Assembly (NCBI GenBank): GCA_963920705.1
Contig: OY987240.1
Location: 7,915,676-7,979,675, forward strand
From: Odiellus spinosus
Lineage: Eukaryota > Arthropoda > Arachnida > Opiliones > Phalangiidae
DNA length: 64,000 nucleotides
Direction: 5' to 3'
Part shown: positions 30,063-64,000 of the stretch, in pieces
Numbering within the stretch: position 1 is the first letter of the stretch
Layout of the letters: each line of letters starts with the position of its first letter
The notes under the pieces: generated by a model
Told to the model about the DNA's origin: nothing
What the model saw: the letters and a program-made list of their open reading frames with translations, nothing else
Databases searched by the model: none
Program-made: the position numbers and the translations under genes

Positions 30063-30393
30063 GTTGGTTTCTTGTTGGTTTCTGTTCAACCCACTTTTTA
30101 TTTTTGGGCACAACCTCTAAAAGCAAAATCCATTAAAACAATTAGTTCCGCTTTGTTAATTTTTACCTTCATTCCCGCAGAAAAACGCTTTTATCAAAAC
30201 GGTATTTTTGCCCGGGTGCCCGCTTTAGAGGTTGTGACTTTATAGAGCGGAACCTCTATTGAAGAGCGGGACTTCTAAATGTTTTAGAAGTTTCGCTTTT
30301 AGACCGTTCCGCGAACGAACCGTTCGTTCGGATATTTCTCTTCAAATATCTTCCCCGTCAAAACCAAAAGTTCTGATTTGTGGAAAAACTTAC
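30063..30393. repeat. Start of second segmental-duplication copy
   Basis: Aligns with 1-68 and 1660-2304 but without the minisatellite. Contains AACCTCTAAAAGC and the inverted TTTTAGAAG/CTTTAGAGG motifs, then the intron next to the gene B donor. Confidence 0.65.
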
Positions 30394-30916
30394 AGATAAT
30401 TCACTTCATCCAAGATTGATCGCGGTAGCTTCTTATTGAAAATGAAATGTCCATATTTGGTTAAATACGTCTTTTCTCCGAAATATAGGGATAGTCTTTT
30501 CGCGCCGAGTCGGGAATTTCGCAATTTGAGTAACAAACGGTAAAAGTAAAAGAACGCGTCTTTAATATTGGATGGAGTGGACACGAAATAGAATCTCGGG
30601 GTACCGTTCCGAAACATCTGAAAGAGTGCAGGGTGGTATTCTCGATAGAAGACCGCTTCCTTCAACATCTTATCCATTAGTGGAAAAGTCTTTCGATGAT
30701 CCATAGCGTAGCCCCCAAAGACTCCATTAGCGTCTAAAGCGGGCCTAGTTCCAGGATACATCTTCAAATCTTCGAGTTTGTCTATTCGAATATTCTTTGA
30801 GATCATGAATTCGCTCTTCAAATTGCCCGTGTAAGCTTTTATTATGACCATCGTGCCCAAGATCCAGCCGCTCAACAGAAGTTTCGCCGATAGTTGTCGC
30901 GGAAAAGTATCCGGAG
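30394..30916 (-). CDS. Ionotropic receptor-like gene B, TM2 and S2 exon
   Basis: This 523-bp exon (phase 1 to 2) starts after CTTAAATAG and ends before GTAAGT. It encodes PDTFPRQLSAKLLLSGW, membrane segment 2 and the S2 lobe to ILDEVNYL. It is open and aligns with the gene A exon with two added codons and many replacements (for example GGYAMDHRKTFPLMDKM against a shorter loop), suggesting divergence in the ligand-binding face. Function of the gene is doubtful because of the missing upstream exon. Confidence 0.8.
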
Positions 30917-31404
30917 CTATTTAAGTAATTTCGTTAATAATATTTATTCAAGAATCCATTTAAGACGCTTCGAGAACTCGCGAAAGGAGCCCGTCCCATA
31001 GAACCTCCCCGCGAACTAAGATCACTCGGGGAGGTAAAAAATATCAATTTCTGTCTCTATCTGCGAGGGAATTTTTAGTTTGGGTTAATTCTATTTTCCA
31101 AAATGAAGAATTGGAAACAACAGATAAACGAGATCAAAGACAATTGCTGAAACGTCGAGTTAATTGAAATATTTTTTAAATAATATTACGTTAAATTCGG
31201 TAAAAATATACTGAAACGCGAGGCAAAATCCTGTTCCGCGAAGTGGAAAGAGTCAAGGAGGGATACTACGCTCTTCACTCTAGGGAGGAGTTAAGAGCCA
31301 AGAATGAATACGGGTACAATTCTACCTTCTTACGATCTCGGCCGATCTCAAGGGGTAAAATTGGTATATACGATGGCTAGAATAGTTAATGATGGATACT
31401 CAAC

Positions 31405-41157: not shown

Positions 41158-42878
41158 CAGGGGCGTAACAACTAGGGGGGGGGGGGCACAGGGGGCATTG
41201 CCCTCTCCTATGTTGATCTTGCCCCCTGCAATAAATTCGATTGCTCCCTGCAATGTCGAACTTGCCCCCTCCAAAACATTTGGATTGCCCCCTCCAAAAC
41301 ATTTGGATTGCCCTCTCCAAAACATTTGGTTTGCCCTCTCCAAAACATTTGGATTGCCCCCTCCAAAACATTTGGATTGCCCCCTCCAAAACATTTGGAT
41401 TGCCCCCTCCAAAACATTTGGATTGCCCCCTCCAAAACATTTGGATTGCCCCCTCCAAAACATTTGGATTGCCCCCTCCAAAACATTTGGATTGCCCCCT
41501 CCAAAACATTTGGATTGCCCCCTCCAAAACATTTGGATTGCCCCCTCCAAAACATTTGGATTGCCCCCTCCAAAACATTTGGATTGCCCCCTCCAAAACA
41601 TTTGGATTGCCCCCTCCAAAACATTTGGATTGCCCCCTCCAAAACATTTGGATTGCCCCCTCCAAAACATTTGGATTGCCCCCTCCAAAACATTTGGATT
41701 GCCCCCTCCAAAACATTTGGATTGCCCCCTCCAAAACATTTGGATTGCCCCCTCCAAAACATTTGGATTGCCCCCTCCAAAACATTTGGATTGCCCCCTC
41801 CAAAACATTTGGATTGCCCCCTCCAAATTATTAAGATTGTCGCCTATATTGTGGAAGTAAAACATTTTCCCTGCTAAACACGCAATAATTTTCAAAAAAA
41901 TACTTCTAATTATTCTATATTGGGAGAAATATTTTATATGAAAATCTTGTAGCTCTAAAAATGTATTTCCTTGGTAACTACTAGACCTAGTTCATAATGT
42001 TCATATAGAAAAATTTTACTGCTATAAAAACCACCGTATTTAAAGAGGTGGTTACTCATCGGTTAAGACCGAAGAAAAATTACTAATGTAAGCCTTCAAG
42101 GCTGTTAAAGCGTGTTACATTGACATTCCCACTCTTCACTTTAATCGCTTAAGCTAAACTAAAAGTATACTTCAAAAACATAAAGCCCAAAACTAAAAAT
42201 TAAAGTGAAAAACAAACCCTCGAATCTCAGCCCTGACTAGATTAGACTCGCCGTTGAACTGAAGTAAGAATTCTACACGTTTAAGGTTTTAACTTTAGAA
42301 ATGTTTAAAATAAGAAAACTGACGGAATATTTTGCGGACATAAAATCCAAATATGAAGGTAAATTACACAAAATTTGTTGACCAACTTGACCACGGTGAA
42401 TAACGTATAATAATATTAATAAAATAATTGAAGATTCAGCTAGTCATGGTGAAAAGAAACTGCTTATTAAATGTTTTATGAGTGCTTTCGGATGAACTGG
42501 AGCAGTGACTCCCTTTTCAATCATTTTATACTCTAACAAAATAACAAAAATACGTCCGAAAGATAACCTGAAAACGTTTATTTAATACAGTTTCCTTTTA
42601 ACCATGCAGCAGCTGTCTCGACTCTAGTGAATTATTTGAATAGTATTATACAATACTATTGTTGTACAGTACTTGTGGGTAGGACTAGGACGTCTGTATT
42701 TGAAAAATTAAAATACCTTTTAGTGTAAAAAATAAAAAATTGATATTCCCCCCCCCTTCTCCCATCTAAAAAAGGTATGCATTTGAAAATAAATTTCAAT
42801 GTAGGAAAAAATCAAAATAAATTGTCACATTTGCGGATTTTGCCCCCCCCCCCTCTGAAAAACGTTCCTACGCCTCTG
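41158..42878. mobile_element. hAT-like non-autonomous element with internal minisatellite
   Basis: It begins CAGGGGCGTAAC and ends TACGCCTCTG, an inverted match to the CAGRGGCGTA type of hAT terminus. Flanking 8-mers TGACCTTT and GACCATTT are near-matches that could be a decayed target duplication. G and C homopolymers occur near both ends. The 23-bp minisatellite fills 41264-41827. No transposase. Confidence 0.6.
41264..41827. repeat. 23-bp minisatellite, about 24 units
   Basis: Unit TTGCCCCCTCCAAAACATTTGGA less one or two edge choices, almost invariant except for CCCCC to CCCTC in three early units. 23 is not a multiple of three and no frame has a stop, so ORFs of 190-268 codons appear in at least five frames. 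They encode the same 23-residue repeat and are not genes. Confidence 0.96.
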
Positions 42879-43713: not shown

Positions 43714-44915
43714 GGTATGTGCCTATTAGCGCAGTTCCTATTAGCGCAGTTCCTATTTGCGCAATTTAACATCAGCGCAATTGCCATTAGAGCCGTTTCC
43801 CACTAACGCCGTTTGCCACTAGCGCCGTTTCCCACTAGTGCCGTTTCCCATTTGCGCAGTTTCCCTTTAGCACATTTCCCATTAGCGCATATCCCATTGG
43901 CGCAATTCCCATAAGCGCCGTTTCCCATATGGAGATAAATGTTTTTTTAATTGAGTTGCCGTGGTTCGGTAGCGGAATGGTTAGAATAGATGGCTTCTAA
44001 CCAGAAGATAGTGAGTTCTAGCCTACATACGGAAAATGATATCTTATCGTTTTCGATTTATTTGGTTCATGTAAATTTCAATAATAATTGTGGTTCTTTT
44101 CAGTTTTCATTGTTGTTAGCAGTATCCTATAATGTAGGAAAAATTGGAAAAAAACGAAATAGATTGCGTGGTCATTTCTTCGCACGTGTTTCTGTTAAGT
44201 TTTGCATGATTTTGCTGTTTTCCGTGTAGTGGGTCAGTTTTGTAAATTTTACGTCGGGTTTAATTAAAGATTTAATTTTAATAGCGGTCAAGTTATTTTT
44301 TTTTGCTAAAATTACTAAATACTACTACTAAATTACAAATTTTTCATTTGGGTAATGCTCTTTTGTTAATTCTCTTTTAGAAAACATCGTTTTTGAACGT
44401 GATCCAGTGGTTTAGGTTAGGTTAGTTTTTCTGAGACAATAAATGCTGAAACAGGAAACCCTTTAGAAGGTAGGGTTAAAAAAAGTTTTAGGAAAGAGTG
44501 GATTGCGCGTCTAGGACATAGCGGTTATTGGGAAACCGCGCTAATGGGAAACGGTGCTAATGGGAAACGGCGCAAATGGGAAACGGCGCAAATGGGAAAC
44601 GGCGCAAATGGGAAACGGCGCAAATGGGAAACGGCGCAAATGGGAAACGGCGCAAATGGGAAACGGCGCAAATGGGAACTGCGCTAATGGGAACGGCGCA
44701 AAAGGGAAACGGCGCAAATGGGAACTGCGCTAATGGGAACGGCGCTAATGGGAAACTGCGCTAATGCGAAATTGCGCTAACGGGAACGGTGCAAATGGGA
44801 AATTGCGCTGACGGGAAACTGCGCTAATGGGAACGGCGCAAATGGGAATGGCGCTAATGGGAAACTGCGCTAATGGGAATGGCGCTAATGTGAACTGCGC
44901 TAATGGACATAATTC
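43714..44915. mobile_element. Foldback-like element 4 (CATTAGCGCAGTTCC arms)
   Basis: The left arm (43725-43930) is ~12 units of CCATTAGCGCCGTTTC type. The right arm (44525-44905) is ~24 units of the inverse, the best run being GGGAAACGGCGCAAAT with a 16-bp period. Ends GGTATGTGCCTATTAGCGCA and the inverse of TGCGCTAATGGACATA match. AAAATATA lies next to both ends (43706-43713, 44916-44923) as a possible 8-bp target duplication. The interior holds a tRNA-like sequence. Confidence 0.65.
43962..44033 (+). tRNA. tRNA-like relic inside foldback element 4
   Basis: GCCGTGGTTCGGTAGCGG resembles an A-box region and AGTGAGTTCTAGCC a decayed B box. CTTCTAA sits where an anticodon loop would be (TCT). 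Acceptor pairing is poor, with only CCGT against ACGG. More likely a pseudogene or SINE head than a working tRNA. Confidence 0.3.
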
Positions 44916-54639: not shown

Positions 54640-54771
54640 CGGTACGTGCCTATTAGCGCTGTTTCCCATTAGCGCCATTCCCATTTGCGCCGTTCCCATT
54701 AGCGCGGATCCCATTTACGCAGTTTCCCATTAGCGCAATTTCCCATTAGCGCAATTCCCATTAGCATCAAT
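54640..54771. mobile_element. Foldback-like element 5, left arm
   Basis: GGTACGTGCCTATTAGCGCT matches the start of element 4 (GGTATGTGCCTATTAGCGCA). Eight ~15-bp units such as TTCCCATTAGCGCCATTCCC follow. The arm ends CATTAGCATCAATG, where the tRNA-array spacer begins. No right arm is seen before the window ends. Confidence 0.6.
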
Positions 54772-54807
54772 GAAGGGTGATTCACACATTTTGTGTGCGA
54801 AAATAAG

Positions 54808-54880
54808 GCCTCCGTGGCCCAAAGGATACGGCGCCGGTCTTCGAAACCGGAGATTGCGGGTTCGAGTCCCGCCGGTGGTA
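54808..54880 (+). tRNA. tRNA-Arg (TCG), array unit 1
   Basis: First unit after the foldback arm. Full cloverleaf with D-loop AAAGGATA; A and B boxes intact; TTTT terminator. Confidence 0.65.
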
Positions 54881-54939
54881 TTCCTTTTATAATAAGCATC
54901 AATGAAGGGTTATTCACACATTTTGCCTGTGAAGATTAA

Positions 54940-55012
54940 GCCTAAATGGCCCAATAGATTCGGCGCCGGTCTTCTACACAGGAGTTTGCGGGTTCGAGTC
55001 CCGCCAGTGGTA
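54940..55012 (+). tRNA. tRNA-Arg-like (TCT), unit 2, degenerate
   Basis: Acceptor GCCTAAA, broken anticodon stem (ACAGG) and loop CTTCTAC: likely pseudogene. Confidence 0.4.
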
Positions 55013-55071
55013 TTACTTTTATAATAAGCATCAATGAAGGGTTATTCACACATTTTGCGAATGAAGGTTAA

Positions 55072-55144
55072 GCCTCCGTGGCACAATGGATACGGCGCGG
55101 GTCTTCTTAACCGGAGATTGCAGGTTCGAGTCCCGCCGGTGGTA
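55072..55144 (+). tRNA. tRNA-Arg (TCT), unit 3
   Basis: Anticodon stem CGGGT/ACCGG and T-stem GCAGG each carry a mismatch; loop CTTCTTA. Same changes as unit 20. Confidence 0.5.
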
Positions 55145-55203
55145 TTCCTTTTATTATAAGCATCAATGCAATGTTATTCATATATTTTGAGAGTGAAGAT
55201 GGA

Positions 55204-55276
55204 GCCTCCGTGGCACAATGGATACGGCGCCGGTCTTCTAAACCGGAGATTACGGGTTCGAGTCCCGCCGGTGGTA
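55204..55276 (+). tRNA. tRNA-Arg (TCT), unit 4
   Basis: Consensus except D-stem GCAC and T-stem ACGGG. Confidence 0.6.
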
Positions 55277-55336
55277 TTCCTTTTATAATAAGCATCAATA
55301 AAGGGTTTTATTCACACATTTTCCAATGTAGATTAA

Positions 55337-55409
55337 GCCTCCGTAGCCCAATGGATACGGCGCCGGTCTTCTAAACCGGAGATTGCGGGTTCGAGTCCCG
55401 CCGGTGGTA
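55337..55409 (+). tRNA. tRNA-Arg (TCT), unit 5
   Basis: Consensus except G9 to A in the A box (TAGCCCAATGG). Confidence 0.62.
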
Positions 55410-55468
55410 TTCCTTTTATAATAAGCATCAATGCAATGTTATTCATATATTTTGAGTGTGAAGATAGA

Positions 55469-55541
55469 GAATCCCTGGCCCAAAGGATACGGCGCCGGTC
55501 TTTTAAACCGGTGATTGTGGGTTCGAGTCCTCCTGGTGGTA
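55469..55541 (+). tRNA. tRNA-Lys-like (TTT), unit 6
   Basis: Loop CTTTTAA. Acceptor GAATCCC pairs badly with TGGTGGT: likely pseudogene. Confidence 0.4.
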
Positions 55542-55600
55542 TTCCTTTTATAATAAGCATCAATGCTATGTTATTCATATATTTTGAGTGTGAAGATAGA

Positions 55601-55673
55601 GTCTCCGTGGCCCAAAGGCTACAGCGCCGGTCTTTTAAACCGGAGATTGCGGGTTCGAGTCCTCCTGGTGGGA
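55601..55673 (+). tRNA. tRNA-Lys-like (TTT), unit 7
   Basis: Loop CTTTTAA, D-arm GGCTACAGC; only TTT follows as terminator. Confidence 0.42.
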
Positions 55674-55731
55674 TTCCTTTAATAATAAGCTTCAATAAAG
55701 GGTTATTCACACATTTTCCAAAGTAGATTAA

Positions 55732-55804
55732 GCCTCCGTGGCCCAATGGATACGGCGCCGGTCTTCTAAACCGGAGATTGCGGGTTCGAGTCCCGCCGGT
55801 GGTA
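55732..55804 (+). tRNA. tRNA-Arg (TCT), unit 8
   Basis: Matches the array consensus throughout. Confidence 0.68.
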
Positions 55805-55863
55805 TTCCTTTTATAATAAGCATCAATGCAATGTTATTCATATATTTTGAGTGTGAAGATAGA

Positions 55864-55936
55864 GTATCCCTGGCCCAAAGGATACGGCGCCGGTTTTTTA
55901 AACCGGAGATTGTAGGTTCGAGTCCTCCTGGTGGTA
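55864..55936 (+). tRNA. tRNA-Lys-like (TTT), unit 9
   Basis: Loop TTTTTAA (C32 to T); acceptor GTATCCC pairs badly. Confidence 0.4.
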
Positions 55937-55995
55937 TTCCTTTTATAATAAGCATCAATGCTATGTTATTCATATATTTTGAGTGTGAAGACAGA

Positions 55996-56067
55996 GCATC
56001 CGTGGCCAAAGGATACGGCGACGGTCTTCGAAACCGGAGATTGCGGGTTCGAGTCCCCCCGGTGGTA
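55996..56067 (+). tRNA. tRNA-Arg-like (TCG), unit 10
   Basis: One base lost from the D-stem (TGGCCAAAGG), 72 nt; acceptor GCATCCG. Confidence 0.42.
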
Positions 56068-56126
56068 TTCCTTTTATAATAAGCATCAATGCAATGCTAT
56101 TCATATATTTTGAGTGTGAAGATAGA

Positions 56127-56199
56127 GCATCCGTGGCACAAGGGATACGGCGACGGTCTTTTAAACCGGAGGTTGTGGGTTCGAGTCCCGCCGGTGGTA
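56127..56199 (+). tRNA. tRNA-Lys-like (TTT), unit 11
   Basis: D-stem GCAC, anticodon stem ACGGT with A27-G43 mismatch; TTT-only terminator. Confidence 0.42.
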
Positions 56200-56258
56200 T
56201 TCCTTTAATAATAAGCATAAATGAAGGGTTATTCACACATTTTGCCAATGAAGATTAA

Positions 56259-56331
56259 GCCCCCGTGGCCCAATGGATACGGCGCCGGTCTTCGAAACCG
56301 GAGATTGCGGGTTCGAGTCCCGCCGGTGGTA
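56259..56331 (+). tRNA. tRNA-Arg (TCG), unit 12
   Basis: Acceptor GCCCCCG (C4-U69 instead of U-U); otherwise consensus. Confidence 0.65.
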
Positions 56332-56390
56332 TTCCTTTTATAATAAGCATCAATGCAATGTTATTCATATATTTTGAGTGTGAAGATAGA

Positions 56391-56457
56391 GTATCCCAAA
56401 GGATACGGCGCCGGTCTTTTAAACCGGTGATTGTGGGTTCGAGTCCTCCTGGTGGTA
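56391..56457 (+). pseudogene. tRNA-Lys-like (TTT) pseudogene, unit 13
   Basis: TGGCCC is deleted, removing half of the A box and the 5' D-stem; 67 nt. Confidence 0.7.
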
Positions 56458-56516
56458 TTCCTTTTATAATAAGCATCAATGCTATGTTATTCATATATTT
56501 TGAGTGTGAAGATAGA

Positions 56517-56589
56517 GCCTCCGTGGCCCAAAGGATACAGCGCCGGTCTTTTAAACCGGAGATTGCGGGTTCGAGTCCTCCTGGTGGGA
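56517..56589 (+). tRNA. tRNA-Lys-like (TTT), unit 14
   Basis: Arg-type acceptor GCCTCCG with Lys anticodon; T-stem 3' strand CCTCC mispaired; TTT-only terminator. Confidence 0.45.
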
Positions 56590-56647
56590 TTCCTTTAATA
56601 ATAAGCATCAATAAAGGGTTATTCACACATTTTCCAAAGTAGATTAA

Positions 56648-56720
56648 GCCTCCGTGGCCCAATGGATACGGCGCCGGTCTTCTAAACCGGAGATTGCGGG
56701 TTCGAGCCCCGCCGGTGGTA
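56648..56720 (+). tRNA. tRNA-Arg (TCT), unit 15
   Basis: Consensus except T-loop TTCGAGC. Confidence 0.63.
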
Positions 56721-56779
56721 TTCCTTTTATAATAAGCATCAATGCAATGTTATTCATATATTTTGAGTGTGAAGATAGA

Positions 56780-56852
56780 GTATCCCTGGCCCAAAGGATA
56801 CGGCGCCGGTCTTTTAAACCGGAGATTGTAGGTTCGAGTCGTCCTGGTGGTA
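56780..56852 (+). tRNA. tRNA-Lys-like (TTT), unit 16
   Basis: Acceptor GTATCCC, T-stem 3' strand GTCCT; near copy of unit 9. Confidence 0.4.
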
Positions 56853-56911
56853 TTCCTTTTATAATAAGCATCAATGCAATGTTATTCATATATTTTGAGT
56901 GTGAAGATAGA

Positions 56912-56984
56912 GCATCCGTGGCACAAGGGATACGGCGACGGTCTTTTAAACCGGAGGTTGTGGGTTCGAGTCCCGCCGGTGGTA
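56912..56984 (+). tRNA. tRNA-Lys-like (TTT), unit 17
   Basis: Near copy of unit 11. Confidence 0.42.
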
Positions 56985-57043
56985 TTCCTTTAATAATAAG
57001 CATAAATGAAAGGTTATTCACACATTTTGCCAATGAAGATTAA

Positions 57044-57116
57044 GCCCCCGTGGCCCAATGGATACGGCGCCGGTCTTCGAAACCGGAGATTGCGGGCTTG
57101 AGTCCCGCCTGTGGTT
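57044..57116 (+). tRNA. tRNA-Arg-like (TCG), unit 18
   Basis: B box altered to GGCTTGAGTCC; 3' end TGTGGTT. Confidence 0.48.
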
Positions 57117-57175
57117 TTCCTTTTATAATAAGCATCAATGCAATGTTATTCATATATTTTGAGAGTGAAGATAGA

Positions 57176-57248
57176 GCATCCGTGGCCCAAGGGATACGGC
57201 GCCGGTCTTTTAAACCGGAGTTTGTGGGTTCGAGTCCCGCCGGTGGTA
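57176..57248 (+). tRNA. tRNA-Lys-like (TTT), unit 19
   Basis: Good anticodon stem CCGGT/ACCGG with loop CTTTTAA; acceptor GCATCCG. Confidence 0.47.
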
Positions 57249-57307
57249 TTCTTTTAATAATAAACATAAATGAAGGGTTATTCACACATTTTGCGAATGA
57301 AGGTTAA

Positions 57308-57380
57308 GCCTCCGTGGCACAATGGATACGGCGCGGGTCTTCTTAACCGGAGATTGCAGGTTCGAGTCCCGCCGGTGGTA
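57308..57380 (+). tRNA. tRNA-Arg (TCT), unit 20
   Basis: Identical in sequence to unit 3: units 3-5 and 20-22 are one duplicated block. Confidence 0.5.
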
Positions 57381-57439
57381 TTCCTTTTATTATAAGCATC
57401 AATGCAATGTTATTCATATATTTTGAGAGTGAAGATGGA

Positions 57440-57512
57440 GCCTCCGTGGCACAATGGATACGGCGCCGGTCTTCTAAACCGGAGATTACGGGTTCGAGTC
57501 ATGCCCGTGGTA
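57440..57512 (+). tRNA. tRNA-Arg (TCT), unit 21
   Basis: As unit 4, but the 3' T-stem/acceptor reads CATGCCCGTGG. Confidence 0.5.
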
Positions 57513-57572
57513 TTCCTTTTATAATAAGCATCAATAAAGGGTTTTATTCACACATTTTCCAATGTAGATTAA

Positions 57573-57645
57573 GCCTCCGTGGCCCAATGGATACGGCGCC
57601 GGTCTTCTAAACCGGAGATTGCGGGTTCGAGTCACGCCGGTGGTA
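57573..57645 (+). tRNA. tRNA-Arg (TCT), unit 22
   Basis: Consensus except T-stem 3' strand CACGC. Confidence 0.6.
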
Positions 57646-57704
57646 TTCCTTTTATAATAAGCATCAATGCAATGTTATTCATATATTTTGGGTGTGAAGA
57701 TAGA

Positions 57705-57776
57705 GCATCCGTGCCCAAAGGATACGGCGACAGTCTTTTAAACCGGAGATTGCGGGTTCGAGTCCTCCTGGTGGTA
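57705..57776 (+). tRNA. tRNA-Lys-like (TTT), unit 23
   Basis: One G lost in the A box (GTGCCCAAAGG), 72 nt; anticodon stem ACAGT mispaired. Confidence 0.38.
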
Positions 57777-57835
57777 TTCCTTTTATAATAAGCATCAATG
57801 CTATGTTATTCATATATTTTGAGTGTGAAGATGGA

Positions 57836-57908
57836 GCCTCCGTGGCCCAATGGATACGGCGCCGGTCTTCGAAACCGGAGATTGCGGGTTCGAGTCCCGC
57901 CGGTGGAA
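57836..57908 (+). tRNA. tRNA-Arg (TCG), unit 24
   Basis: Consensus except U72 to A at the acceptor 3' strand. Confidence 0.62.
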
Positions 57909-57967
57909 TTCCTTTTATAATTAGCATCAATGAAGGGTTATTCACACATTTTGCCAATGAAGACCAA

Positions 57968-58040
57968 GCCCACGTGGCCCAATGGATACGGCGCCGGTCT
58001 TCTAAACCGGAGATTCCGGGTTCGAGTCCCGCCGGTTGTA
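57968..58040 (+). tRNA. tRNA-Arg (TCT), unit 25
   Basis: Acceptor GCCCACG and CGGTTGT; T-stem CCGGG. Confidence 0.5.
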
Positions 58041-58099
58041 TTCTTTTTATAATAAGCATCAATGCAATGTTATTCATATATTTTGATATTGGAGATAGA

Positions 58100-58172
58100 G
58101 CATCCGTGGCCCAAAGGATACGGCGCCGGTCTTCTAAACCGGAGATTGCGGGTTCGAGTCCCGCCGGTGGTA
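58100..58172 (+). tRNA. tRNA-Arg (TCT), unit 26
   Basis: Acceptor GCATCCG and D-loop AAAGGATA, a body otherwise linked with TTT or TCG. Confidence 0.55.
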
Positions 58173-58231
58173 TTCCTATTATAATAAGCATCAATGCAAT
58201 TTTATTCATATATTTTGAGAGTGAACATGGA

Positions 58232-58304
58232 ACCTCTGGGGCCCAATGGATACGGCGTCGGTCTTCTAAACCGGAGATTGCGGGTTCGAGTCCCGCCGGT
58301 GGTA
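58232..58304 (+). tRNA. tRNA-Arg (TCT), unit 27
   Basis: Acceptor ACCTCTG (A1-U72 pair), T8 replaced by G; anticodon stem TCGGT. Confidence 0.52.
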
Positions 58305-58362
58305 TTCCTTTTATAATAAGCATCAATGAAGGGTCATTCACACATTTTCCAATGTAGGTTAA

Positions 58363-58435
58363 GGCTCCGTGGCCCAATGGATACGGCGCCGGTCTTCTAA
58401 ACCGGAGATTGCGGGTTCGAGTCCCGCCGGTGGTA
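58363..58435 (+). tRNA. tRNA-Arg (TCT), unit 28
   Basis: Consensus except acceptor GGCTCCG. Confidence 0.6.
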
Positions 58436-58493
58436 ATCCTTTTATAATAAGCATCAATAAAGGGTTATTCACACATTTTCCAATGTAGATTAA

Positions 58494-58566
58494 GCCTCCG
58501 TGGCCCAATGGATACGGCGCCGGTCTTCGAAACCGGAGATTGCGGGTTCGGGTCCCGCCGGTGGTA
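58494..58566 (+). tRNA. tRNA-Arg (TCG), unit 29
   Basis: T-loop TTCGGGT (A58 position changed to G). Confidence 0.58.
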
Positions 58567-58624
58567 TTCCTTTTATAATAAGCATCAATGAAGGGTCATT
58601 CACACATTTTCCATTGAAGATTAA

Positions 58625-58697
58625 GCCTCCGTGGCCCAATGGATACGGCGCCGGTCTTCGAAACCGGAGATTTCGGGTTCGAGTCCCGCCGGTGGTA
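58625..58697 (+). tRNA. tRNA-Arg (TCG), unit 30
   Basis: T-stem TCGGG; otherwise consensus. Confidence 0.62.
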
Positions 58698-58756
58698 TTC
58701 CTTTTATTATAAGCATCAATGCAATGTTATTCATATATTTTAATATTGGAGATAGA

Positions 58757-58829
58757 GCATCCGTGGCCCAAAGGATACGGCGCCGGTCTTCGAAACCGGA
58801 GATTTCGGGTTCGAGTCCCGCCGGTGGTA
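58757..58829 (+). tRNA. tRNA-Arg (TCG), unit 31
   Basis: Acceptor GCATCCG, D-loop AAAGGATA, T-stem TCGGG. Confidence 0.55.
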
Positions 58830-58888
58830 TTCTTTTTATAATAAGCATCAATGCAATGTTATTCATATATTTTGAGTGTTAACATAGA

Positions 58889-58961
58889 GCCTCCGTGGCC
58901 CAATGGATACGGCGCCGGTCTTCTAAACCGGAGAATGCGGGTTCGAGTCCCGCCGGTGGTA
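58889..58961 (+). tRNA. tRNA-Arg (TCT), unit 32
   Basis: Consensus except variable loop AGAAT. Confidence 0.67.
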
Positions 58962-59019
58962 TTCCTTTTATAATAAGCATCAATGAAGGGTTATTCACAC
59001 ATTTTCCAATCTAAATTAA

Positions 59020-59092
59020 GCCTCCGTGGCCCAATGGATACGGCGCCGGTCTTCTAAACCGGAGATTGCGGGTTCGAGTCCCGCCGGTGGTA
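59020..59092 (+). tRNA. tRNA-Arg (TCT), unit 33
   Basis: Exact consensus. Confidence 0.68.
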
Positions 59093-59151
59093 TTCCTTTT
59101 ATTATAAGCATCAATGCAATGTTATTCATATATTTTGATATTGGAGATAGA

Positions 59152-59224
59152 GCATCCGTGGCCCAAAGGATACGGCGCCGGTCTTCGAAACCGGAGATTT
59201 CGGGTTCGAGTCCCGCCGGTGGTA
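59152..59224 (+). tRNA. tRNA-Arg (TCG), unit 34
   Basis: Identical tRNA to unit 31. Confidence 0.55.
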
Positions 59225-59283
59225 TTCTTTTTATAATAAGCATCAATGCAATGTTATTCATATATTTTGAGGGTTAACATAGA

Positions 59284-59356
59284 GCCTCCGTGGCCCAATG
59301 GATACGGCGCCGGTCTTCTAAACCGGAGATTGCGGGTTCGAGGCCCGCCGGTGGTA
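59284..59356 (+). tRNA. tRNA-Arg (TCT), unit 35
   Basis: Consensus except T-loop TTCGAGG. Confidence 0.62.
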
Positions 59357-59414
59357 TTCCTTTTATAATAAGCATCAATGAAGGGTTATTCACACATTTT
59401 CCATTGAAGATTAA

Positions 59415-59487
59415 GCCTCCGTGGCCCAATGGATACGGCGCCGGTCTTCTAAACCGGAGATTGCGGGTTCGAGTCCCGCCGGTGGTA
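59415..59487 (+). tRNA. tRNA-Arg (TCT), unit 36
   Basis: Exact consensus. Confidence 0.68.
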
Positions 59488-59546
59488 TTCCTTTTATAAT
59501 AAGCATCAATGCAATTTTATTCATATATTTTGAGAGTGAAGATAGA

Positions 59547-59619
59547 ACCTCTGGGGCCCAATGGATACGGCGCCGGTCTTCTAAACCGGAGATTGCGGGT
59601 TCGAGTCCCGCCGGTGGTA
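59547..59619 (+). tRNA. tRNA-Arg (TCT), unit 37
   Basis: Acceptor ACCTCTG and GG at 8-9, as unit 27. Confidence 0.55.
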
Positions 59620-59677
59620 ATCCTTTTATAATAAGCATCAATAAAGGGTTATTCACACATTTTCCAATGTAGATTAA

Positions 59678-59750
59678 GCCTCCGTGGCCCAATGGATACG
59701 GCGCCGGTCTTCGAAACCGGAGATTGCGGGTTCGGGTCCCGCCGGTGGTA
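59678..59750 (+). tRNA. tRNA-Arg (TCG), unit 38
   Basis: Same tRNA as unit 29 (T-loop TTCGGGT). Confidence 0.58.
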
Positions 59751-59808
59751 TTCCTTTTATAATAAGCATCAATGAAGGGTCATTCACACATTTTCCAATG
59801 TAGATTAA

Positions 59809-59881
59809 GCCTCCGTTGCCCAATGGATACGGCGCCGGTCTTCTAAACCGGAGATTGCGGGTTCGAGTTCCGTCGGTGGTA
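59809..59881 (+). tRNA. tRNA-Arg (TCT), unit 39
   Basis: A box TTGCCCAATGG; T-stem 3' strand TCCGT. Confidence 0.52.
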
Positions 59882-59940
59882 TTCCTTTTATAATAAGCAT
59901 CAATGCAATTTTATTCATATATTTTGAGTGTGAAGGTAGA

Positions 59941-60013
59941 GCATCCGTGGCCCAAAGGATACGGCGACGGTCTTTTAAACCGGAGATTGCGGGATCGAGT
60001 CCTCCTGGTGGTA
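59941..60013 (+). tRNA. tRNA-Lys-like (TTT), unit 40
   Basis: B box damaged (GGATCGAGTCC); A27-G43 mismatch; CCTCC T-stem strand. Confidence 0.38.
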
Positions 60014-60072
60014 TTACTTTTATAATAAGCATCAATGCTATGTTATTCATATATTTTGATAGTGGAGATAGA

Positions 60073-60145
60073 GCATCCGTGGCCCAAAGGATACGGCGCC
60101 GGTCTTCGAAACCGGAGATTGCGGGTTCGAGTCCAGCCGGTGGTA
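60073..60145 (+). tRNA. tRNA-Arg (TCG), unit 41
   Basis: Acceptor GCATCCG; T-stem 3' strand CCAGC. Confidence 0.53.
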
Positions 60146-60204
60146 TTCTTTTTATAATAAGCATCAAAGCAATGTTATTCATATATTTTGAGATTTAACA
60201 TAGA

Positions 60205-60277
60205 ACCTCCGTGGCCCAATGGATACGGCGCCGGTCTTCGAAACCGGAGATTGCGGGTTCGAGTCCCGCCGGTGGTA
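60205..60277 (+). tRNA. tRNA-Arg (TCG), unit 42
   Basis: Acceptor ACCTCCG restores an A1-U72 pair; otherwise consensus. Confidence 0.66.
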
Positions 60278-60335
60278 TTCCTTTTATAATAAGCATCAAT
60301 GAAGGGTCATTCACACATTTTCCAATGTAGATTAA

Positions 60336-60408
60336 GCCTCCGTTGCCCAATGGATACGGCGCCGGTCTTCTAAACCGGAGATTGCGGGTTCGAGTCCCGT
60401 CGGTGGTA
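60336..60408 (+). tRNA. tRNA-Arg (TCT), unit 43
   Basis: A box TTGCCCAATGG; T-stem 3' strand CCCGT (G-U pair retained). Confidence 0.57.
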
Positions 60409-60467
60409 TTCCTTTTATAATAAGCATCAATGCAATTTTATTCATATATTTTGAGTGTGAAGGTAGA

Positions 60468-60540
60468 GCATCCGTGGCCCAAAGGATACGGCGACGGTCT
60501 TTTAAACCGGAGATTGCGGGTTCGAGTCCTCCTGGTGGTA
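60468..60540 (+). tRNA. tRNA-Lys-like (TTT), unit 44
   Basis: Intact A and B boxes; A27-G43 mismatch and CCTCC T-stem strand. Confidence 0.43.
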
Positions 60541-60599
60541 TTCCTTTTATAATAAGCATCAATGCTATGTTATTCATATATTTTGAGTGTGAAGATGGA

Positions 60600-60672
60600 G
60601 CCTCCGTGGCCCAAAGGATACGGCGCCGGTCTTCGAAACCGGAGATTGCGGGTTCGAGTCCCGCCGGTGGTA
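60600..60672 (+). tRNA. tRNA-Arg (TCG), unit 45
   Basis: Consensus with D-loop AAAGGATA, as unit 1. Confidence 0.66.
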
Positions 60673-60731
60673 TTCTTTTTATAATAAGCATCAAAGCAAT
60701 GTTATTCATATATTTTGAGAATTAACATAGA

Positions 60732-60804
60732 ACCTCCGTGGCCCAATGGATACGGCGCCGGTCTTCGAAACCGGAGATTGCGGGTTCGAGTCCCGTCGGT
60801 GGTA
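60732..60804 (+). tRNA. tRNA-Arg (TCG), unit 46
   Basis: Acceptor ACCTCCG; T-stem 3' strand CCCGT. Confidence 0.63.
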
Positions 60805-60863
60805 TTCCTTTTATAATAAGCATCAATGCAATTTTATTCATATATTTTGAGTGTGAAGGTAGA

Positions 60864-60936
60864 GCATCCGTGGCCCAAAGGATACGGCGACGGTCTTTTA
60901 AACCGCAGATTGCGGGTTCGAGTCCTCCTGGTGGTA
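60864..60936 (+). tRNA. tRNA-Lys-like (TTT), unit 47
   Basis: As unit 44, with anticodon stem 3' strand ACCGC. Confidence 0.4.
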
Positions 60937-60995
60937 TTCCTTTTATAATAAGCATCAATGCTATGTTATTCATATATTTTGAGTGTGAAGATGGA

Positions 60996-61068
60996 GCCTC
61001 CGTGGGCCAAAGGATACGGCGCCGGTCTTCGAAACCGGAGATTGCGGGTTCGAGTCCCGCCGGTGGTA
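60996..61068 (+). tRNA. tRNA-Arg (TCG), unit 48
   Basis: D-stem GGCC in TGGGCCAAAGG; otherwise consensus. Confidence 0.58.
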
Positions 61069-61127
61069 TTCTTTTTATAATAAGCATCAATGCAATGTTA
61101 TTCATATATTTTGAAATTTGACATAGA

Positions 61128-61200
61128 GCCTCCGTGGCCCAATGGATACGGCGCCGGTCTTCTAAACCGGAGATTCCGGGTTCGAGTCCCGCCGGTGGTA
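61128..61200 (+). tRNA. tRNA-Arg (TCT), unit 49
   Basis: T-stem CCGGG; otherwise consensus. Confidence 0.63.
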
Positions 61201-61259
61201 TTATTTTTATAATGAGCATCAATGCTATGTTATTCATATATTTTGATAGTGGAGATAGA

Positions 61260-61332
61260 GCATCCGTGGCTCAAAGGAAACGGCGCCGGTCTTCGAAACC
61301 GGTGATTGCGGGTTCGAGTCCCGCCGGTGGTA
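61260..61332 (+). tRNA. tRNA-Arg (TCG), unit 50
   Basis: Acceptor GCATCCG; D-arm GCTCAAAGGAAA; long T run follows. Confidence 0.5.
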
Positions 61333-61391
61333 TTTTTTTTATAATAAGCATCAATGCAATGTGATTCATATATTTTGAGATTTATCATAGA

Positions 61392-61464
61392 GCCTCCGTG
61401 GCCCAATGGATACGGCGCCGGTCTTCTAAACCGGAGATTGTGGGTTCGAGTCCCGCCGGTGCTA
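61392..61464 (+). tRNA. tRNA-Arg (TCT), unit 51
   Basis: T-stem GTGGG; acceptor 3' strand CGGTGCT. Confidence 0.55.
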
Positions 61465-61523
61465 TTCCTTTTATAATAAGCATCAATAAAGGGTTATTCG
61501 CACATTTTGCCAGTGAAGATAAA

Positions 61524-61596
61524 GCCTACGTAGCCCAAAGGATACGGCGCCGGTCTTTTAAACCGGAGTTCACGGGTTCGAGTCCCGCTGGAGGTA
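61524..61596 (+). tRNA. tRNA-Lys-like (TTT), unit 52
   Basis: Unlike other TTT units it follows an A-type spacer. Acceptor GCCTACG/TGGAGGT has U4-A69 paired, but A5-G68 unpaired. Confidence 0.48.
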
Positions 61597-61655
61597 TTCC
61601 TTTTATAATAAGCATCAATGCAATGATATTCATATATTTTGAGTGTGAATAAAGA

Positions 61656-61728
61656 GCCTCCGTGGCTCAATGGATACGGCGCCGGTCTTCGAAACCGGAG
61701 ATTGCGGGTTCGAGTCCCGCCGGTGGTA
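61656..61728 (+). tRNA. tRNA-Arg (TCG), unit 53
   Basis: D-stem GCTC; otherwise consensus. Confidence 0.65.
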
Positions 61729-61787
61729 TTCCTTTTATAATAAGCATCAATGCAATGTTATTCATATATTTTGAGGGTAAAGATGGA

Positions 61788-61860
61788 GCCTCCGTGGCCC
61801 AATGGATACGGCGCTGGTCTTCGAAACCGGTGGTTGCGGGTTTGAGTCCCGCCGGTGGTA
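61788..61860 (+). tRNA. tRNA-Arg (TCG), unit 54
   Basis: Anticodon stem CTGGT (T-G wobble), variable loop TGGTT, B box GGTTTGAGTCC. Confidence 0.55.
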
Positions 61861-61919
61861 TTCCTTTTATAATAAGCATCAATGCAATGTTATTCATATA
61901 TTTTGAGGGTGAAGATGGA

Positions 61920-61992
61920 GGCTCCGGGGGCCCAATGGATACGGCGCGGTCATCTAAACCGGAGATTGCGGGTTCGAGTCCCGCCGATGGTA
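61920..61992 (+). tRNA. tRNA-Arg-like (TCT), unit 55
   Basis: One extra G before the D-stem, one base lost in the anticodon stem, loop CATCTAA: universal T33 is A. Likely pseudogene. Confidence 0.4.
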
Positions 61993-62050
61993 TTCCTTTT
62001 ATAATAAGCATCAATGAAGGGTTATTCACACATTTTCCAATGAAGATTGA

Positions 62051-62123
62051 GCCTCCGTGGCCCAATGGATACGGCGCCGGTCTTCTAAACCGGAGATTGC
62101 GGGTTCGAGTCCCGACGGTGGTA
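62051..62123 (+). tRNA. tRNA-Arg (TCT), unit 56
   Basis: Consensus except T-stem 3' strand CCCGA. Confidence 0.62.
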
Positions 62124-62182
62124 TTTCTTTTATAATAAGCATCAATGAAGGGTTATTCACACATTTTGCCCATGAAGATTAA

Positions 62183-62255
62183 GCCCCCGTGGCCCAATGG
62201 ATACGGCGCCGGTCTTCGAAACCGGAGATTGCGGGTTCGAGTCCCGCCGATGGTA
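62183..62255 (+). tRNA. tRNA-Arg (TCG), unit 57
   Basis: Acceptor GCCCCCG/CGATGGT. Confidence 0.56.
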
Positions 62256-62313
62256 TTCCTTTTATAATAAGCATCAATGAAGGGTTATTCACACATTTTC
62301 CAATGAAGATTGA

Positions 62314-62386
62314 GCCTCCGTGGCCCAATGGATACGGCGCCGGTCTTCTAAACCGGAGATTGCGGGTTCGAGTCCCGACGGTGGTA
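62314..62386 (+). tRNA. tRNA-Arg (TCT), unit 58
   Basis: Same tRNA as unit 56; units 56-57 and 58-59 are a recent dimer duplication. Confidence 0.62.
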
Positions 62387-62445
62387 TTTCTTTTATAATA
62401 AGCATCAATGAAGGGTTATTCACACATTTTGCCAATGAAGATTAA

Positions 62446-62518
62446 GCCCCCGTGGCCCAATGGATACGGCGCCGGTCTTCGAAACCGGAGATTGCGGGTT
62501 CGAGTCCCGCCGGTGGTA
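62446..62518 (+). tRNA. tRNA-Arg (TCG), unit 59
   Basis: Acceptor GCCCCCG; otherwise consensus. Confidence 0.65.
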
Positions 62519-62576
62519 TTCCTTTTATAATAAGCATCAATGAAGGGTTATTCACACATTTTCCAATGAAGATTAA

Positions 62577-62649
62577 GCCTCCGTGGCCCAATGGATACGG
62601 CGCCGATCTTCTAAACCGGAGATTGCGGGTTCGAGTCCCGCCGGTGGTA
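62577..62649 (+). tRNA. tRNA-Arg (TCT), unit 60
   Basis: Anticodon stem CCGAT has one mismatch; otherwise consensus. Confidence 0.6.
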
Positions 62650-62707
62650 TTTTTTTATAATAAGCATCAATGCAATGTTATTCATATATTTTGAGATTTA
62701 ACATAGA

Positions 62708-62767
62708 GCCTCCGTGGCCCAATGGATACGGCGCCGGAGATTGTGGGTTCGAGTCCCGCCGGTGCTA
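62708..62767 (+). pseudogene. tRNA-Arg pseudogene lacking the anticodon arm, unit 61
   Basis: The 13-14 bases between the two CCGG halves of the anticodon stem are gone, leaving GCGCCGGAGATTG. A and B boxes remain. Confidence 0.85.
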
Positions 62768-62826
62768 TTCCTTTTATAATAAGCATCAATAAAGGGTTAT
62801 TCGCACATTTTGCAAGTGAAGATAAA

Positions 62827-62899
62827 GCCTACGTAGCCCAAAGGATACGGCGCCGGTCTTTTAAACCGGAGTTCACGGGTTCGAGTCCCGCTGGAGGTA
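62827..62899 (+). tRNA. tRNA-Lys-like (TTT), unit 62
   Basis: Same tRNA as unit 52. Confidence 0.48.
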
Positions 62900-62958
62900 T
62901 TCCTTTTATAATAAGCATCAATGCAATGATATTCATATATTTTGTGTGTGAATAAAGA

Positions 62959-63031
62959 GCCTCCGTGGCCCAATGGATACGGCGCCGGTCTTCGAAACCG
63001 GAGATAGCGGGTTCGAGTCCCGCAGGTGGTA
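62959..63031 (+). tRNA. tRNA-Arg (TCG), unit 63
   Basis: T-stem 5' strand and variable loop read AGATA-GCGGG; acceptor 3' strand AGGTGGT. Confidence 0.6.
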
Positions 63032-63090
63032 TTCCTTTTATAATAAGCATCAATGCAATGTTATTCATATATTTTGGGAGTGAAGATAGA

Positions 63091-63163
63091 GCCTCCGTGG
63101 CCCAATGGATACGGCGCCGGTCTTCGAAACCGGTGGTTGCGGGTTTGAGTCCCGCCGGTGGTA
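63091..63163 (+). tRNA. tRNA-Arg (TCG), unit 64
   Basis: Variable loop TGGTT and B box GGTTTGAGTCC, related to unit 54. Confidence 0.58.
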
Positions 63164-63222
63164 TTCCTTTTATAATAAGCATCAATGCAATGTTATTCAT
63201 ATATTTTGAGGGTGAAGATGGA

Positions 63223-63295
63223 GCCTCCGGGGGCCAATGGATACGGCGCTGGTCTTCGAAACCGGTGGTAGCGGGTTTGAGTCCCGCCGGTGGTA
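63223..63295 (+). tRNA. tRNA-Arg-like (TCG), unit 65
   Basis: GG replaces TG at 8-9 and D-stem GGCC; B box GGTTTGAGTCC. Confidence 0.48.
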
Positions 63296-63353
63296 TTCCT
63301 TTTATAAAAACATCAATGCAATGTTATTCATATATTTTGAGGGTGAAGATGGA

Positions 63354-63426
63354 GGCTCCGGGGGCCCAATGGATACGGCGCGGTCATCTAAACCGGAGAT
63401 TGCGGGTTCGAGTCCCGCCGATGGTA
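63354..63426 (+). tRNA. tRNA-Arg-like (TCT), unit 66
   Basis: Same defective tRNA as unit 55, including A33. Confidence 0.4.
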
Positions 63427-63485
63427 TTCCTTTTATAATAAGCATCAATGAAGGGTCATTCACACATTTTGCCAATGAAGATTAA

Positions 63486-63558
63486 GCCCCCGTGGCCCAA
63501 TGGATACGGCGCTGGTCTTCGAAACCGGAGATTGCGGGTTCGAGTCCCGCCGGTGGTA
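63486..63558 (+). tRNA. tRNA-Arg (TCG), unit 67
   Basis: Acceptor GCCCCCG; anticodon stem CTGGT with a T-G wobble. Confidence 0.62.
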
Positions 63559-63617
63559 TTCCTTTTTTAATAAGCATCAATGCAATGTTATTCATATATT
63601 TTGGGAGTGAAGATAGA

Positions 63618-63690
63618 GCCTCCGTGGCCCAATGGATACGGCGCCGGTCTTCTAAACCGGAGATTGCGGGTTCGAGTCCCGCCGGTGGTA
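63618..63690 (+). tRNA. tRNA-Arg (TCT), unit 68
   Basis: Exact consensus. Confidence 0.68.
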
Positions 63691-63747
63691 TACCTTTTAT
63701 AATAAGCATCAATATTGGGTTATTCACACATTTTCAATGTAGATTAA

Positions 63748-63820
63748 GCCTCCGTGGCCCAATGGATACGGCGCCGGTCTTCTAAACCGGAGATTGCGGG
63801 TTCGAGTCCCGCCGTTGGTA
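63748..63820 (+). tRNA. tRNA-Arg (TCT), unit 69
   Basis: Consensus except acceptor 3' strand CGTTGGT. Confidence 0.62.
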
Positions 63821-63879
63821 TTCCTTTTATAATAAGCATCAATGCAATTTTATTCATATATTTTGAGAGTGAAGATAGA

Positions 63880-63952
63880 ACCTCTGGGGCCCAATGGAAA
63901 CGGCGCCGGTCTTCTAAACCGGAGATTGCGGGTTCGAGTCCCGCCGGTGGTA
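63880..63952 (+). tRNA. tRNA-Arg (TCT), unit 70
   Basis: Acceptor ACCTCTG, GG at 8-9, D-loop AATGGAAA. Spacer follows to the window edge. Confidence 0.52.
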
Positions 63953-64000
63953 TTCCTTTTATAATAAGCATCAATAAAGGGTTATTCACACATTTTCCAA

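What the first reader, a model, noticed from the sequence alone, without database searches (positions are those of the whole stretch)
54772..64000. A tRNA satellite: 70 tandem tRNA-Arg/Lys-like genes with a 132-bp period
Every repeat unit is one complete tRNA-like gene plus a 59-bp spacer, with A box, B box and usually a TTTT stop. A run of 70 uninterrupted units of one isotype family, still open at the window edge, is far beyond ordinary tRNA clusters and looks like satellite DNA made from a Pol III gene. It could be a dosage-amplified tRNA locus, a source of tRNA fragments, or a Pol III-driven chromatin boundary.
Basis: partly seen in the sequence, partly recalled or inferred. Interest (0 to 1): 0.92.

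Follow-up and report, generated by a model that had tools for sequence, protein, structure and literature searches.

The report
Satellite array of arginine tRNA genes
A stretch of an arthropod chromosome is built from hundreds of head-to-tail copies of one transfer-RNA gene, one of a dozen such arrays read in the same genome, some well kept and some, like this one, partly decayed.

Summary
Window 54763-63996 is a 132-bp tandem repeat of 70 units, each a tRNA-Arg-like gene plus a 59-bp spacer. It runs beyond the window: 385 copies to C18:8021103, a transposon, then 28 more. It is not alone. The genome (443 Mb, 286 contigs; chelicerate- or myriapod-type by mitochondrial gene order) holds isotype-specific tRNA satellites for Arg, Lys, Gly, Glu, Asp, Ala, Cys and Val; I read 12 arrays, most in part, on 9 contigs.

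Best explanation: rDNA-like concerted evolution of whole Pol III genes. A tRNA-Arg(CCT) gene with its flanks became tandem and expands by unequal exchange; one 30-unit block is duplicated at 3936 of 3937 bases. Between two Arg arrays the tRNA is kept (69 of 72) while the spacer drifts (41 of 59). The window's array is a partly decayed daughter: 195 of 348 Arg-anticodon units but 0 of 49 Lys-anticodon units keep all 19 stem pairs tested.

Such arrays are in print for Entamoeba, Hydractinia and Phytophthora infestans, so this is a new member of a known kind. Transcription was not tested.

The parts
54763..63996 (+). tRNA-Arg-derived satellite array, 132-bp period, 70 units in the window; continues to C18:8021103 (window start = C18:7915676)
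   Evidence: TRF; segmentation; place
54808..54880 (+). first tRNA-Arg(TCG)-like unit of the array
   Evidence: ARAGORN; Rfam 60.9 bits
55337..55409 (+). best-scoring tRNA-Arg(TCT)-like unit of the window
   Evidence: Rfam RF00005 64.5 bits, E 1e-11
55601..55673 (+). example of a Lys(TTT)-anticodon unit, a broken Arg derivative
   Evidence: ARAGORN; Rfam only 31.6 bits; every one of the 15 TTT units in the window has 1 to 6 broken pairs
56346..56470 (+). truncated unit (125 bp, 5' half of the tRNA shortened)
   Evidence: sequence
62663..62780 (+). truncated unit (118 bp, anticodon arm missing)
   Evidence: sequence
54652..54765 (+). minisatellite (TTAGCGCNNTTCCCA-type) that abuts the left end of the array; the junction shares the letters AGC
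   Evidence: TRF; sequence

Best explanation
The window shows the left end of a tRNA-Arg satellite: a complete Pol III gene (tRNA body, A and B boxes, T-run stop) with its own flanks, made tandem and kept alike by unequal exchange, as in rDNA. Its ancestor was a tRNA-Arg(CCT) gene. One array on contig C2 kept the CCT anticodon and a sound acceptor stem; the arrays on C18 (the window's, and an inverted one 1.8 Mb away) shifted to TCT, gained a U-U mismatch at 4-69 and split into TCT, TCG and TTT subfamilies. The same thing happened to other isotypes in this genome, so a large part of its tRNA genes sits in isotype-specific satellites. Selection with homogenisation keeps the tRNA consensus in each array while spacers drift; old or surplus arrays decay. 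Most likely a fraction of the window's Arg-anticodon units still makes tRNA-Arg or pre-tRNA and the rest is redundant. Shown: structure, extent, other arrays, between-array constraint, decay of the Lys-anticodon units, one recent block duplication. Inferred: ancestry direction, transcription, function.
For: Extent: 385.5 + 27.8 TRF copies, 412 full units. Second copy C18:6171924-6198675 on the other strand and a tRNA-Arg(CCT) array C2:21175692-21198375. Isolated tRNA-Arg(CCT) gene C2:15702601, 1 base from the C2 array consensus and 2 from the window's. Spacers of the C18 and C2 arrays are alike: score 60, z 5.8, best of 500 shuffles 48; the other 20 spacer pairs of 7 arrays have z at most 2.5. 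tRNA 3 of 72 differ against 18 of 59 spacer positions, Fisher p 5.9e-5; two leader classes inside the array differ at 10 of 45 leader positions and 0 of 72 tRNA positions, p 3.6e-5. Other arrays: Ala, Cys, Lys x2, Val, Gly, Asp, Glu x2; all 9 have tRNA closer to consensus than spacer. Unequal exchange: C18:7980822-7984758 against 7984759-7988695, 3936 of 3937 identical. T-run after the tRNA in 385 of 412 units.
Against: Within the leader classes the tRNA is not clearly better kept than the spacer. Array A class 1 (197 units): leader .947, tRNA .931, trailer .970; class 2 (215).951.978.982; array B class 1 (91).938.933.944; class 2 (56).939.946.954. So selection on single units is weak or absent in part of the array. 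Only 171 of 412 (A) and 23 of 147 (B) units pass my intactness test. The A consensus folds less well than the C2 array or the single gene (-27.5 against -33.9 kcal/mol). No RNA, Pol III or read data could be seen.
Confidence: 0.82

Rival explanations
1. Decayed tRNA pseudogene satellite: the C18 arrays are transcriptionally silent repeats, and tRNA-Arg comes from the C2 array and dispersed genes.
For: Within-class variation shows little or no tRNA constraint; most units have at least one broken pair or other defect (171 of 412 and 23 of 147 intact); consensus has a 4-69 mismatch; an intact CCT array and single gene exist.
Against: 64 window units still pass the tRNA model, as do 318 matches in the 60 kb that follow (which hold 342 full units); T-run stop in 385 of 412; class 2 units keep .978 in the tRNA against .951 in the leader. 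No other tRNA-Arg(TCT) or (TCG) gene was looked for separately.
Confidence: 0.35
2. Dosage amplification: the arrays exist because large amounts of these tRNAs are needed.
For: Gly array has exact copies of the fruit-fly tRNA-Gly(GCC) (at least 189 matches, many 100%); Ala, Cys, Lys, Gly and Glu(C8) arrays have tRNAs near consensus (.978 to .993).
Against: The Entamoeba authors argue that such gene numbers are not needed and do not follow codon use (PMC2652664, section 29). Arrays decay in places (Arg on C18, Glu on C168). No expression or codon-use data here.
Confidence: 0.25
3. Chromatin role: TFIIIC/Pol III loading makes the array a boundary, a replication-fork pause or a heterochromatin seed.
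For: A tRNA tandem repeat in man sits at a domain boundary and binds CTCF (PMC4041453, passages). Dense B boxes, 353 of 412 exact.
Against: No chromatin data; B boxes are expected in any tRNA-derived repeat.
Confidence: 0.15
4. Retroposon (SINE-type) satellite, as reported for reptile SINE satellites and a newt tRNA-Glu family.
For: Both are tandem repeats with a tRNA-like part (PMC10702118, passages).
Against: The unit holds a complete tRNA gene with a leader and a T-run stop and no A-tail or other SINE body in its 59-bp spacer; no CCA is encoded after the tRNA; a second array shares the flank as well as the gene, which a processed copy would not.
Confidence: 0.04
5. Assembly artefact.
For: The 30-unit block duplicated at 3936 of 3937 bases could be a mis-join. 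No reads were available.
Against: 282 of 412 units are distinct; array edges pass into unique sequence; a dozen arrays with different units and periods show the same habit.
Confidence: 0.03

Closest known systems
Entamoeba tRNA gene arrays (PMC2652664; passages and section 29 read)
   Same: Almost all tRNA genes in long tandem arrays, kept uniform by concerted evolution; one array of E. histolytica is a single tRNA-Arg(TCT) unit [R-TCT].
   Different: There units hold 1 to 5 tRNAs with short tandem repeats between genes, and the authors saw no clear pseudogenes; here the 12 arrays read have one tRNA per unit and this one has many broken units.
Hydractinia tRNA arrays (PMC11067881; passages and section 14 read)
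   [quoted passage not shown] a cnidarian, not an arthropod. The section read reports no decaying arrays.
Phytophthora infestans tRNA arrays (PMC9584435; passages read)
   Same: Monomeric isotype-specific arrays such as 271 tRNA-Cys copies on one chromosome; growth by unequal crossing-over proposed; arrays of one anticodon on two chromosomes differ from each other.
   Different: 513-bp Cys unit and dimeric or trimeric units there; an oomycete.
Human 1q23.3 tRNA VNTR (PMC4041453; passages read)
   Same: tRNA genes in a copy-number-variable tandem repeat; a proposed boundary role.
   Different: 7.3-kb unit with several different tRNAs, 9 to 43 copies.
tRNA-derived tandem families of amphibians (newt PolIII/TAN, Xenopus OAX, Rana/polIII), as told in PMC10702118 (passages)
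   Same: Tandem repeats with a tRNA-like part.
   Different: Units of about 250 to 360 bp or longer with partial tRNA likeness; the newt family is said to come from a retroposed tRNA-Glu.

Membership tests
tRNA gene (Rfam RF00005) | Covariance score above the gathering score | tested here: met
   64 matches in the window, 318 in the next 60 kb; about 6 of 70 window units fail.
tRNA gene (Rfam RF00005) | Sound acceptor stem | tested here: inconclusive
   Consensus has U-U at 4-69 (384 of 412 units); G-U at 1-72 is usual in human tRNA-Arg(CCT) (recalled).
tRNA gene (Rfam RF00005) | Pol III transcription, processing and charging | not testable with these tools
   No RNA or ChIP data.
tRNA-Lys (for the TTT units) | Own tRNA-Lys body and intact stems | tested here: not met
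   Arg body; 0 of 49 (A) and 0 of 14 (B) with all 19 pairs. True tRNA-Lys(TTT) arrays lie on C4 and C5 with another body.
Satellite DNA | Long head-to-tail array of near-identical short units with homogenisation | tested here: met
   132 bp x 385.5 and x 27.8; 30-unit duplication at 3936 of 3937; neighbours are barely more alike than distant units on average (.880 to .902 at lags 1-3 against .879).
Entamoeba/Hydractinia-type tRNA array organisation | Several isotypes each in their own tandem array | tested here: met
   Arg, Val, Ala, Cys, Lys, Gly, Asp, Glu.
Entamoeba/Hydractinia-type tRNA array organisation | All or almost all isotypes in arrays | tested here: inconclusive
   8 amino acids seen; Thr genes at C1:24411001-24416000 are three in 5 kb, not an array. 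A Ser/Pro query did not complete; other isotypes not queried.
SINE-derived satellite | tRNA head with SINE body, tail or retroposed (CCA-bearing) tRNA | tested here: not met
   Whole gene plus leader and T-run stop, no A-tail, no CCA.

The most novel reading that the evidence does not exclude
This arthropod has turned most of its tRNA gene set into rDNA-like satellites with a life cycle: an array is born from one gene with its flanks, grows by unequal exchange, stays functional while selection holds the consensus (Gly, Ala, Cys, Lys, Glu on C8, Arg-CCT on C2), then buds daughter arrays whose anticodons drift across amino acids (Arg to Lys on C18; Glu to Asp or Val anticodons on C168) while Pol III signals persist, giving a standing pool of anticodon-shifted tRNA-like RNAs and a niche for transposons.
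Probability: 0.35. Interest if true: 0.75.

Novelty: new member of a known kind. Interest (0 to 1): 0.5.

Why it matters
tRNA tandem arrays have been called unusual outside Entamoeba (PMC11067881). A chelicerate- or myriapod-type arthropod with a dozen isotype-specific tRNA satellites, from near-perfect to decaying, lets one watch how a tRNA array is born, homogenised and lost inside one genome. It also warns annotators: tRNA gene counts and anticodon counts from such genomes are dominated by satellite units, and the 15 'tRNA-Lys' units in this window are not tRNA-Lys genes.

Tried and rejected
Rejected: chance (70 in-register units); a mixed Arg/Lys tRNA cluster (TTT units are broken Arg bodies); a SINE satellite (see rivals); a CpG-decay cause for the variation in the tRNA body (divergence at CpG and other tRNA columns is alike in A.0405 against .0377). 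Spacers of the two Lys arrays could not be shown to be related (score 40, z 2.5, below the best shuffle), so the between-array test rests on the Arg pair and, more weakly, the Glu pair (1 of 72 against 8 of 66 aligned spacer positions, p 0.014). In one search the TTTT count for array C was made with appended letters and is void; the recount is 134 of 135. The pair 4-69 and the D-stem position 13-22 were left out of the pair counts.

Led nowhere: protein homologues (timed out; one search said the shared database is switched off, and I did not ask again); the organism's name; a Ser/Pro tRNA query (asked 15 times, never answered).
Full report
What is there. TRF finds one array at window 54763-63996, period 132, 70.2 copies. 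ARAGORN tRNAs in it and Rfam RF00005 64 above its gathering score. Segmentation with a unit profile gives 70 units: anticodons TCT 30, TCG 24, TTT 15, missing 1; TTTT after 65; exact B box in 57; loose A box in 53; all 19 tested stem pairs in 25; 18 pass my full intactness test (Arg anticodon, T33, exact B box, no gap, all 19 pairs). Two units are truncated.

Beyond the window. The window is C18:7915676-7979675 of a genome of 443074358 bases in 286 contigs. The array runs to C18:8021103 (385.5 TRF copies), is interrupted, and resumes at 8030685-8034341 (27.8 copies); 412 full units in all, 385 and 27. The interruption encodes a P-element-like transposase (Pfam TNP-like_RNaseH_N, E 1.5e-10). 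A second array of the same family lies 1.8 Mb away on the other strand, C18:6171924-6198675, in three blocks of about 36, 27 and 93 copies, 147 full units of 158 hits. A third, on C2:21175692-21198375, has a 135-bp unit and anticodon CCT in 133 of 135 full units. An isolated tRNA-Arg(CCT) gene is at C2:15702601-15702673.

A genome-wide habit. A whole-genome tRNA scan scored only its best 63 of 60283 first-look candidates, but these pointed to clusters, and stretches of them read as arrays: tRNA-Ala (31 in 5 kb, period 159-160), tRNA-Cys (38 in 6 kb, 154), tRNA-Lys on C4 (40 in 6 kb, 148) and tRNA-Lys on C5 (40 in 6 kb, 149). Stretches read: Gly 29 in 5 kb (step 164), Asp 23 in 5 kb (step 210), Glu on C8 18 in 3 kb (step 140), Glu on C168 23 tRNA calls in 4 kb (step 139). 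tRNA-Val, period 150, 21 copies, lies next to the inverted Arg array. Not every tRNA locus is an array: C1:24411001-24416000 has three tRNA-Thr genes and C3:17520001-17523000 two tRNA-Cys genes. I read 12 arrays on 9 contigs, the Arg and Val ones across their length and the rest in part; no isotype census was possible.

Which organism. On mitochondrial contig C286 COX1 runs straight into COX2 (3 bases between frames) and tRNA-Leu(UUR) lies beside ND1. In Pancrustacea that tRNA sits between cox1 and cox2, in chelicerates and myriapods beside nad1 (PMC2194727, passages). So the owner is probably a chelicerate or myriapod. Two window frames resemble ionotropic receptors (Lig_chan, 26.1 and 25.4 bits, below Pfam's cut-off of 30.8), which fits an arthropod.

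Constraint. Between arrays: the consensus tRNAs of the C18 and C2 Arg arrays differ at 3 of 72 positions (34, 59, 69), their spacers at 18 of 59 aligned positions with 3 gap columns (Fisher p 5.9e-5). That the spacers are homologous rests on an alignment score of 60 (z 5.8; best of 500 shuffles 48), while 20 other spacer pairs among 7 arrays reach z 2.5 at most. Inside the C18 family two leader classes differ at 10 of 45 leader positions and at none of 72 tRNA positions (p 3.6e-5). In 9 other arrays units are closer to consensus in the tRNA than in the spacer: Ala .983/.920, Cys .989/.939, Lys C4 .982/.930, Lys C5 .989/.961, Val .935/.855, Gly .993/.975, Asp .984/.971, Glu C168 .920/.809, Glu C8 .978/.934; likewise Arg on C2 .981/.947. 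Against this reading, within the leader classes of the C18 arrays the tRNA is about as variable as the leader except in class 2 of array A (.978 against .951). The window's array is thus the least constrained of those examined.

Decay and anticodon drift. Among C18 units with Arg anticodons 195 of 348 (array A) and 31 of 116 (array B) keep all 19 tested pairs; among TTT units 0 of 49 and 0 of 14 do. Of the 49 TTT units in array A 45 are in leader class 1. These are not independent events, since units descend from one another. The Glu array on C168 shows the same: ARAGORN reads 13 Glu, 7 Asp, 2 Val and 1 Asn anticodons in 4 kb, with the tRNA consensus 1 of 72 from the Glu array on C8. So drifted anticodons mark decaying daughter arrays.

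How it grows. Units 79-108 of array A (C18:7980822-7984758) and the next 30 (7984759-7988695) are identical at 3936 of 3937 bases, as expected from a recent unequal exchange. Elsewhere identity hardly depends on distance between units (.880 to .902 at lags 1-3 against .879 far apart). Edge units are somewhat less like their class consensus than inner ones (.933 and .936 in the first and last group of array A against up to .973 inside).

What it most likely does. A tRNA-Arg satellite with most Pol III signals intact and a minority of sound genes. I think a fraction of the Arg units is still transcribed and that the array as a whole is redundant. Transcription, charging and any boundary role are untested.

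What is known. In print are tRNA arrays in Entamoeba (PMC2652664), Hydractinia for all 20 amino acids (PMC11067881), Phytophthora infestans (PMC9584435) and one in man (PMC4041453); a survey found large tDNA clusters in several lineages, with fifty or more members in Nematostella and teleosts (PMC2888827, sections 5 and 6). A sea spider genome paper reports 4189 predicted tRNA genes (PMC12220506, passages). My four answered searches listed no paper on tRNA satellites in arthropods; that is a narrow search of open papers. The finding is a new member of a known kind, with a decaying branch.

Noticed in passing
C18:8021104-8030684 (L013 1429-10000, L014 1-1009): A P-element-like transposon sits inside a tRNA-Arg unit; a related copy (92% over 1.8 kb) abuts a tRNA-Val unit at C18:6207364. 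By eye both left junctions follow the letters GAT, which in both tRNAs precede AC. It may prefer tRNA satellites.
   Followed up: partly
C18:6198676-6204222 (L019-L020): A non-LTR retroelement (endonuclease, reverse transcriptase, zf-RVT) with a poly-T run at one end and a poly-A run at the other lies exactly between the inverted tRNA-Arg array and the tRNA-Val array, each broken inside a unit.
   Followed up: partly
C2:21182264-21183475 (L023): A retroelement fragment with a TTCAG-like repeat tail is inserted inside a tRNA-Arg(CCT) unit; no Pfam match.
   Followed up: no
window 2301-2846 and 30390-30920, strand -: Two related frames resembling ionotropic receptors (Lig_chan below cut-off).
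   Followed up: no
window 43725-43928, 44529-44906, 54652-54765: The same TTAGCGC/TTTCCCA minisatellite occurs three times, once inverted, and abuts the tRNA array.
   Followed up: no
window 70-1637, 15678-18553, 28246-28575, 41262-41827: Other tandem repeats in the same window: 15 bp x104, 40 bp x63 and x9, CTCGT x66, 23 bp x25.
   Followed up: no
window 19736-21508 and 22135-23904: Two repeats of the same pattern (17-bp, 142-bp and 24-bp tandem units) about 2.4 kb apart, a likely segmental duplication.
   Followed up: no
G000 C17:1.1-4.4 Mb: Ten further COX1-like matches lie on contig C17, some with TAG or TAA in frame, likely nuclear copies of mitochondrial DNA; one more on C14.
   Followed up: no
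C168:816350-837598 and C168:1136881-1163295: Two stretches of degenerate tRNA-Glu units with closely matching spacing on one 1.33-Mb contig, perhaps a large duplication.
   Followed up: no
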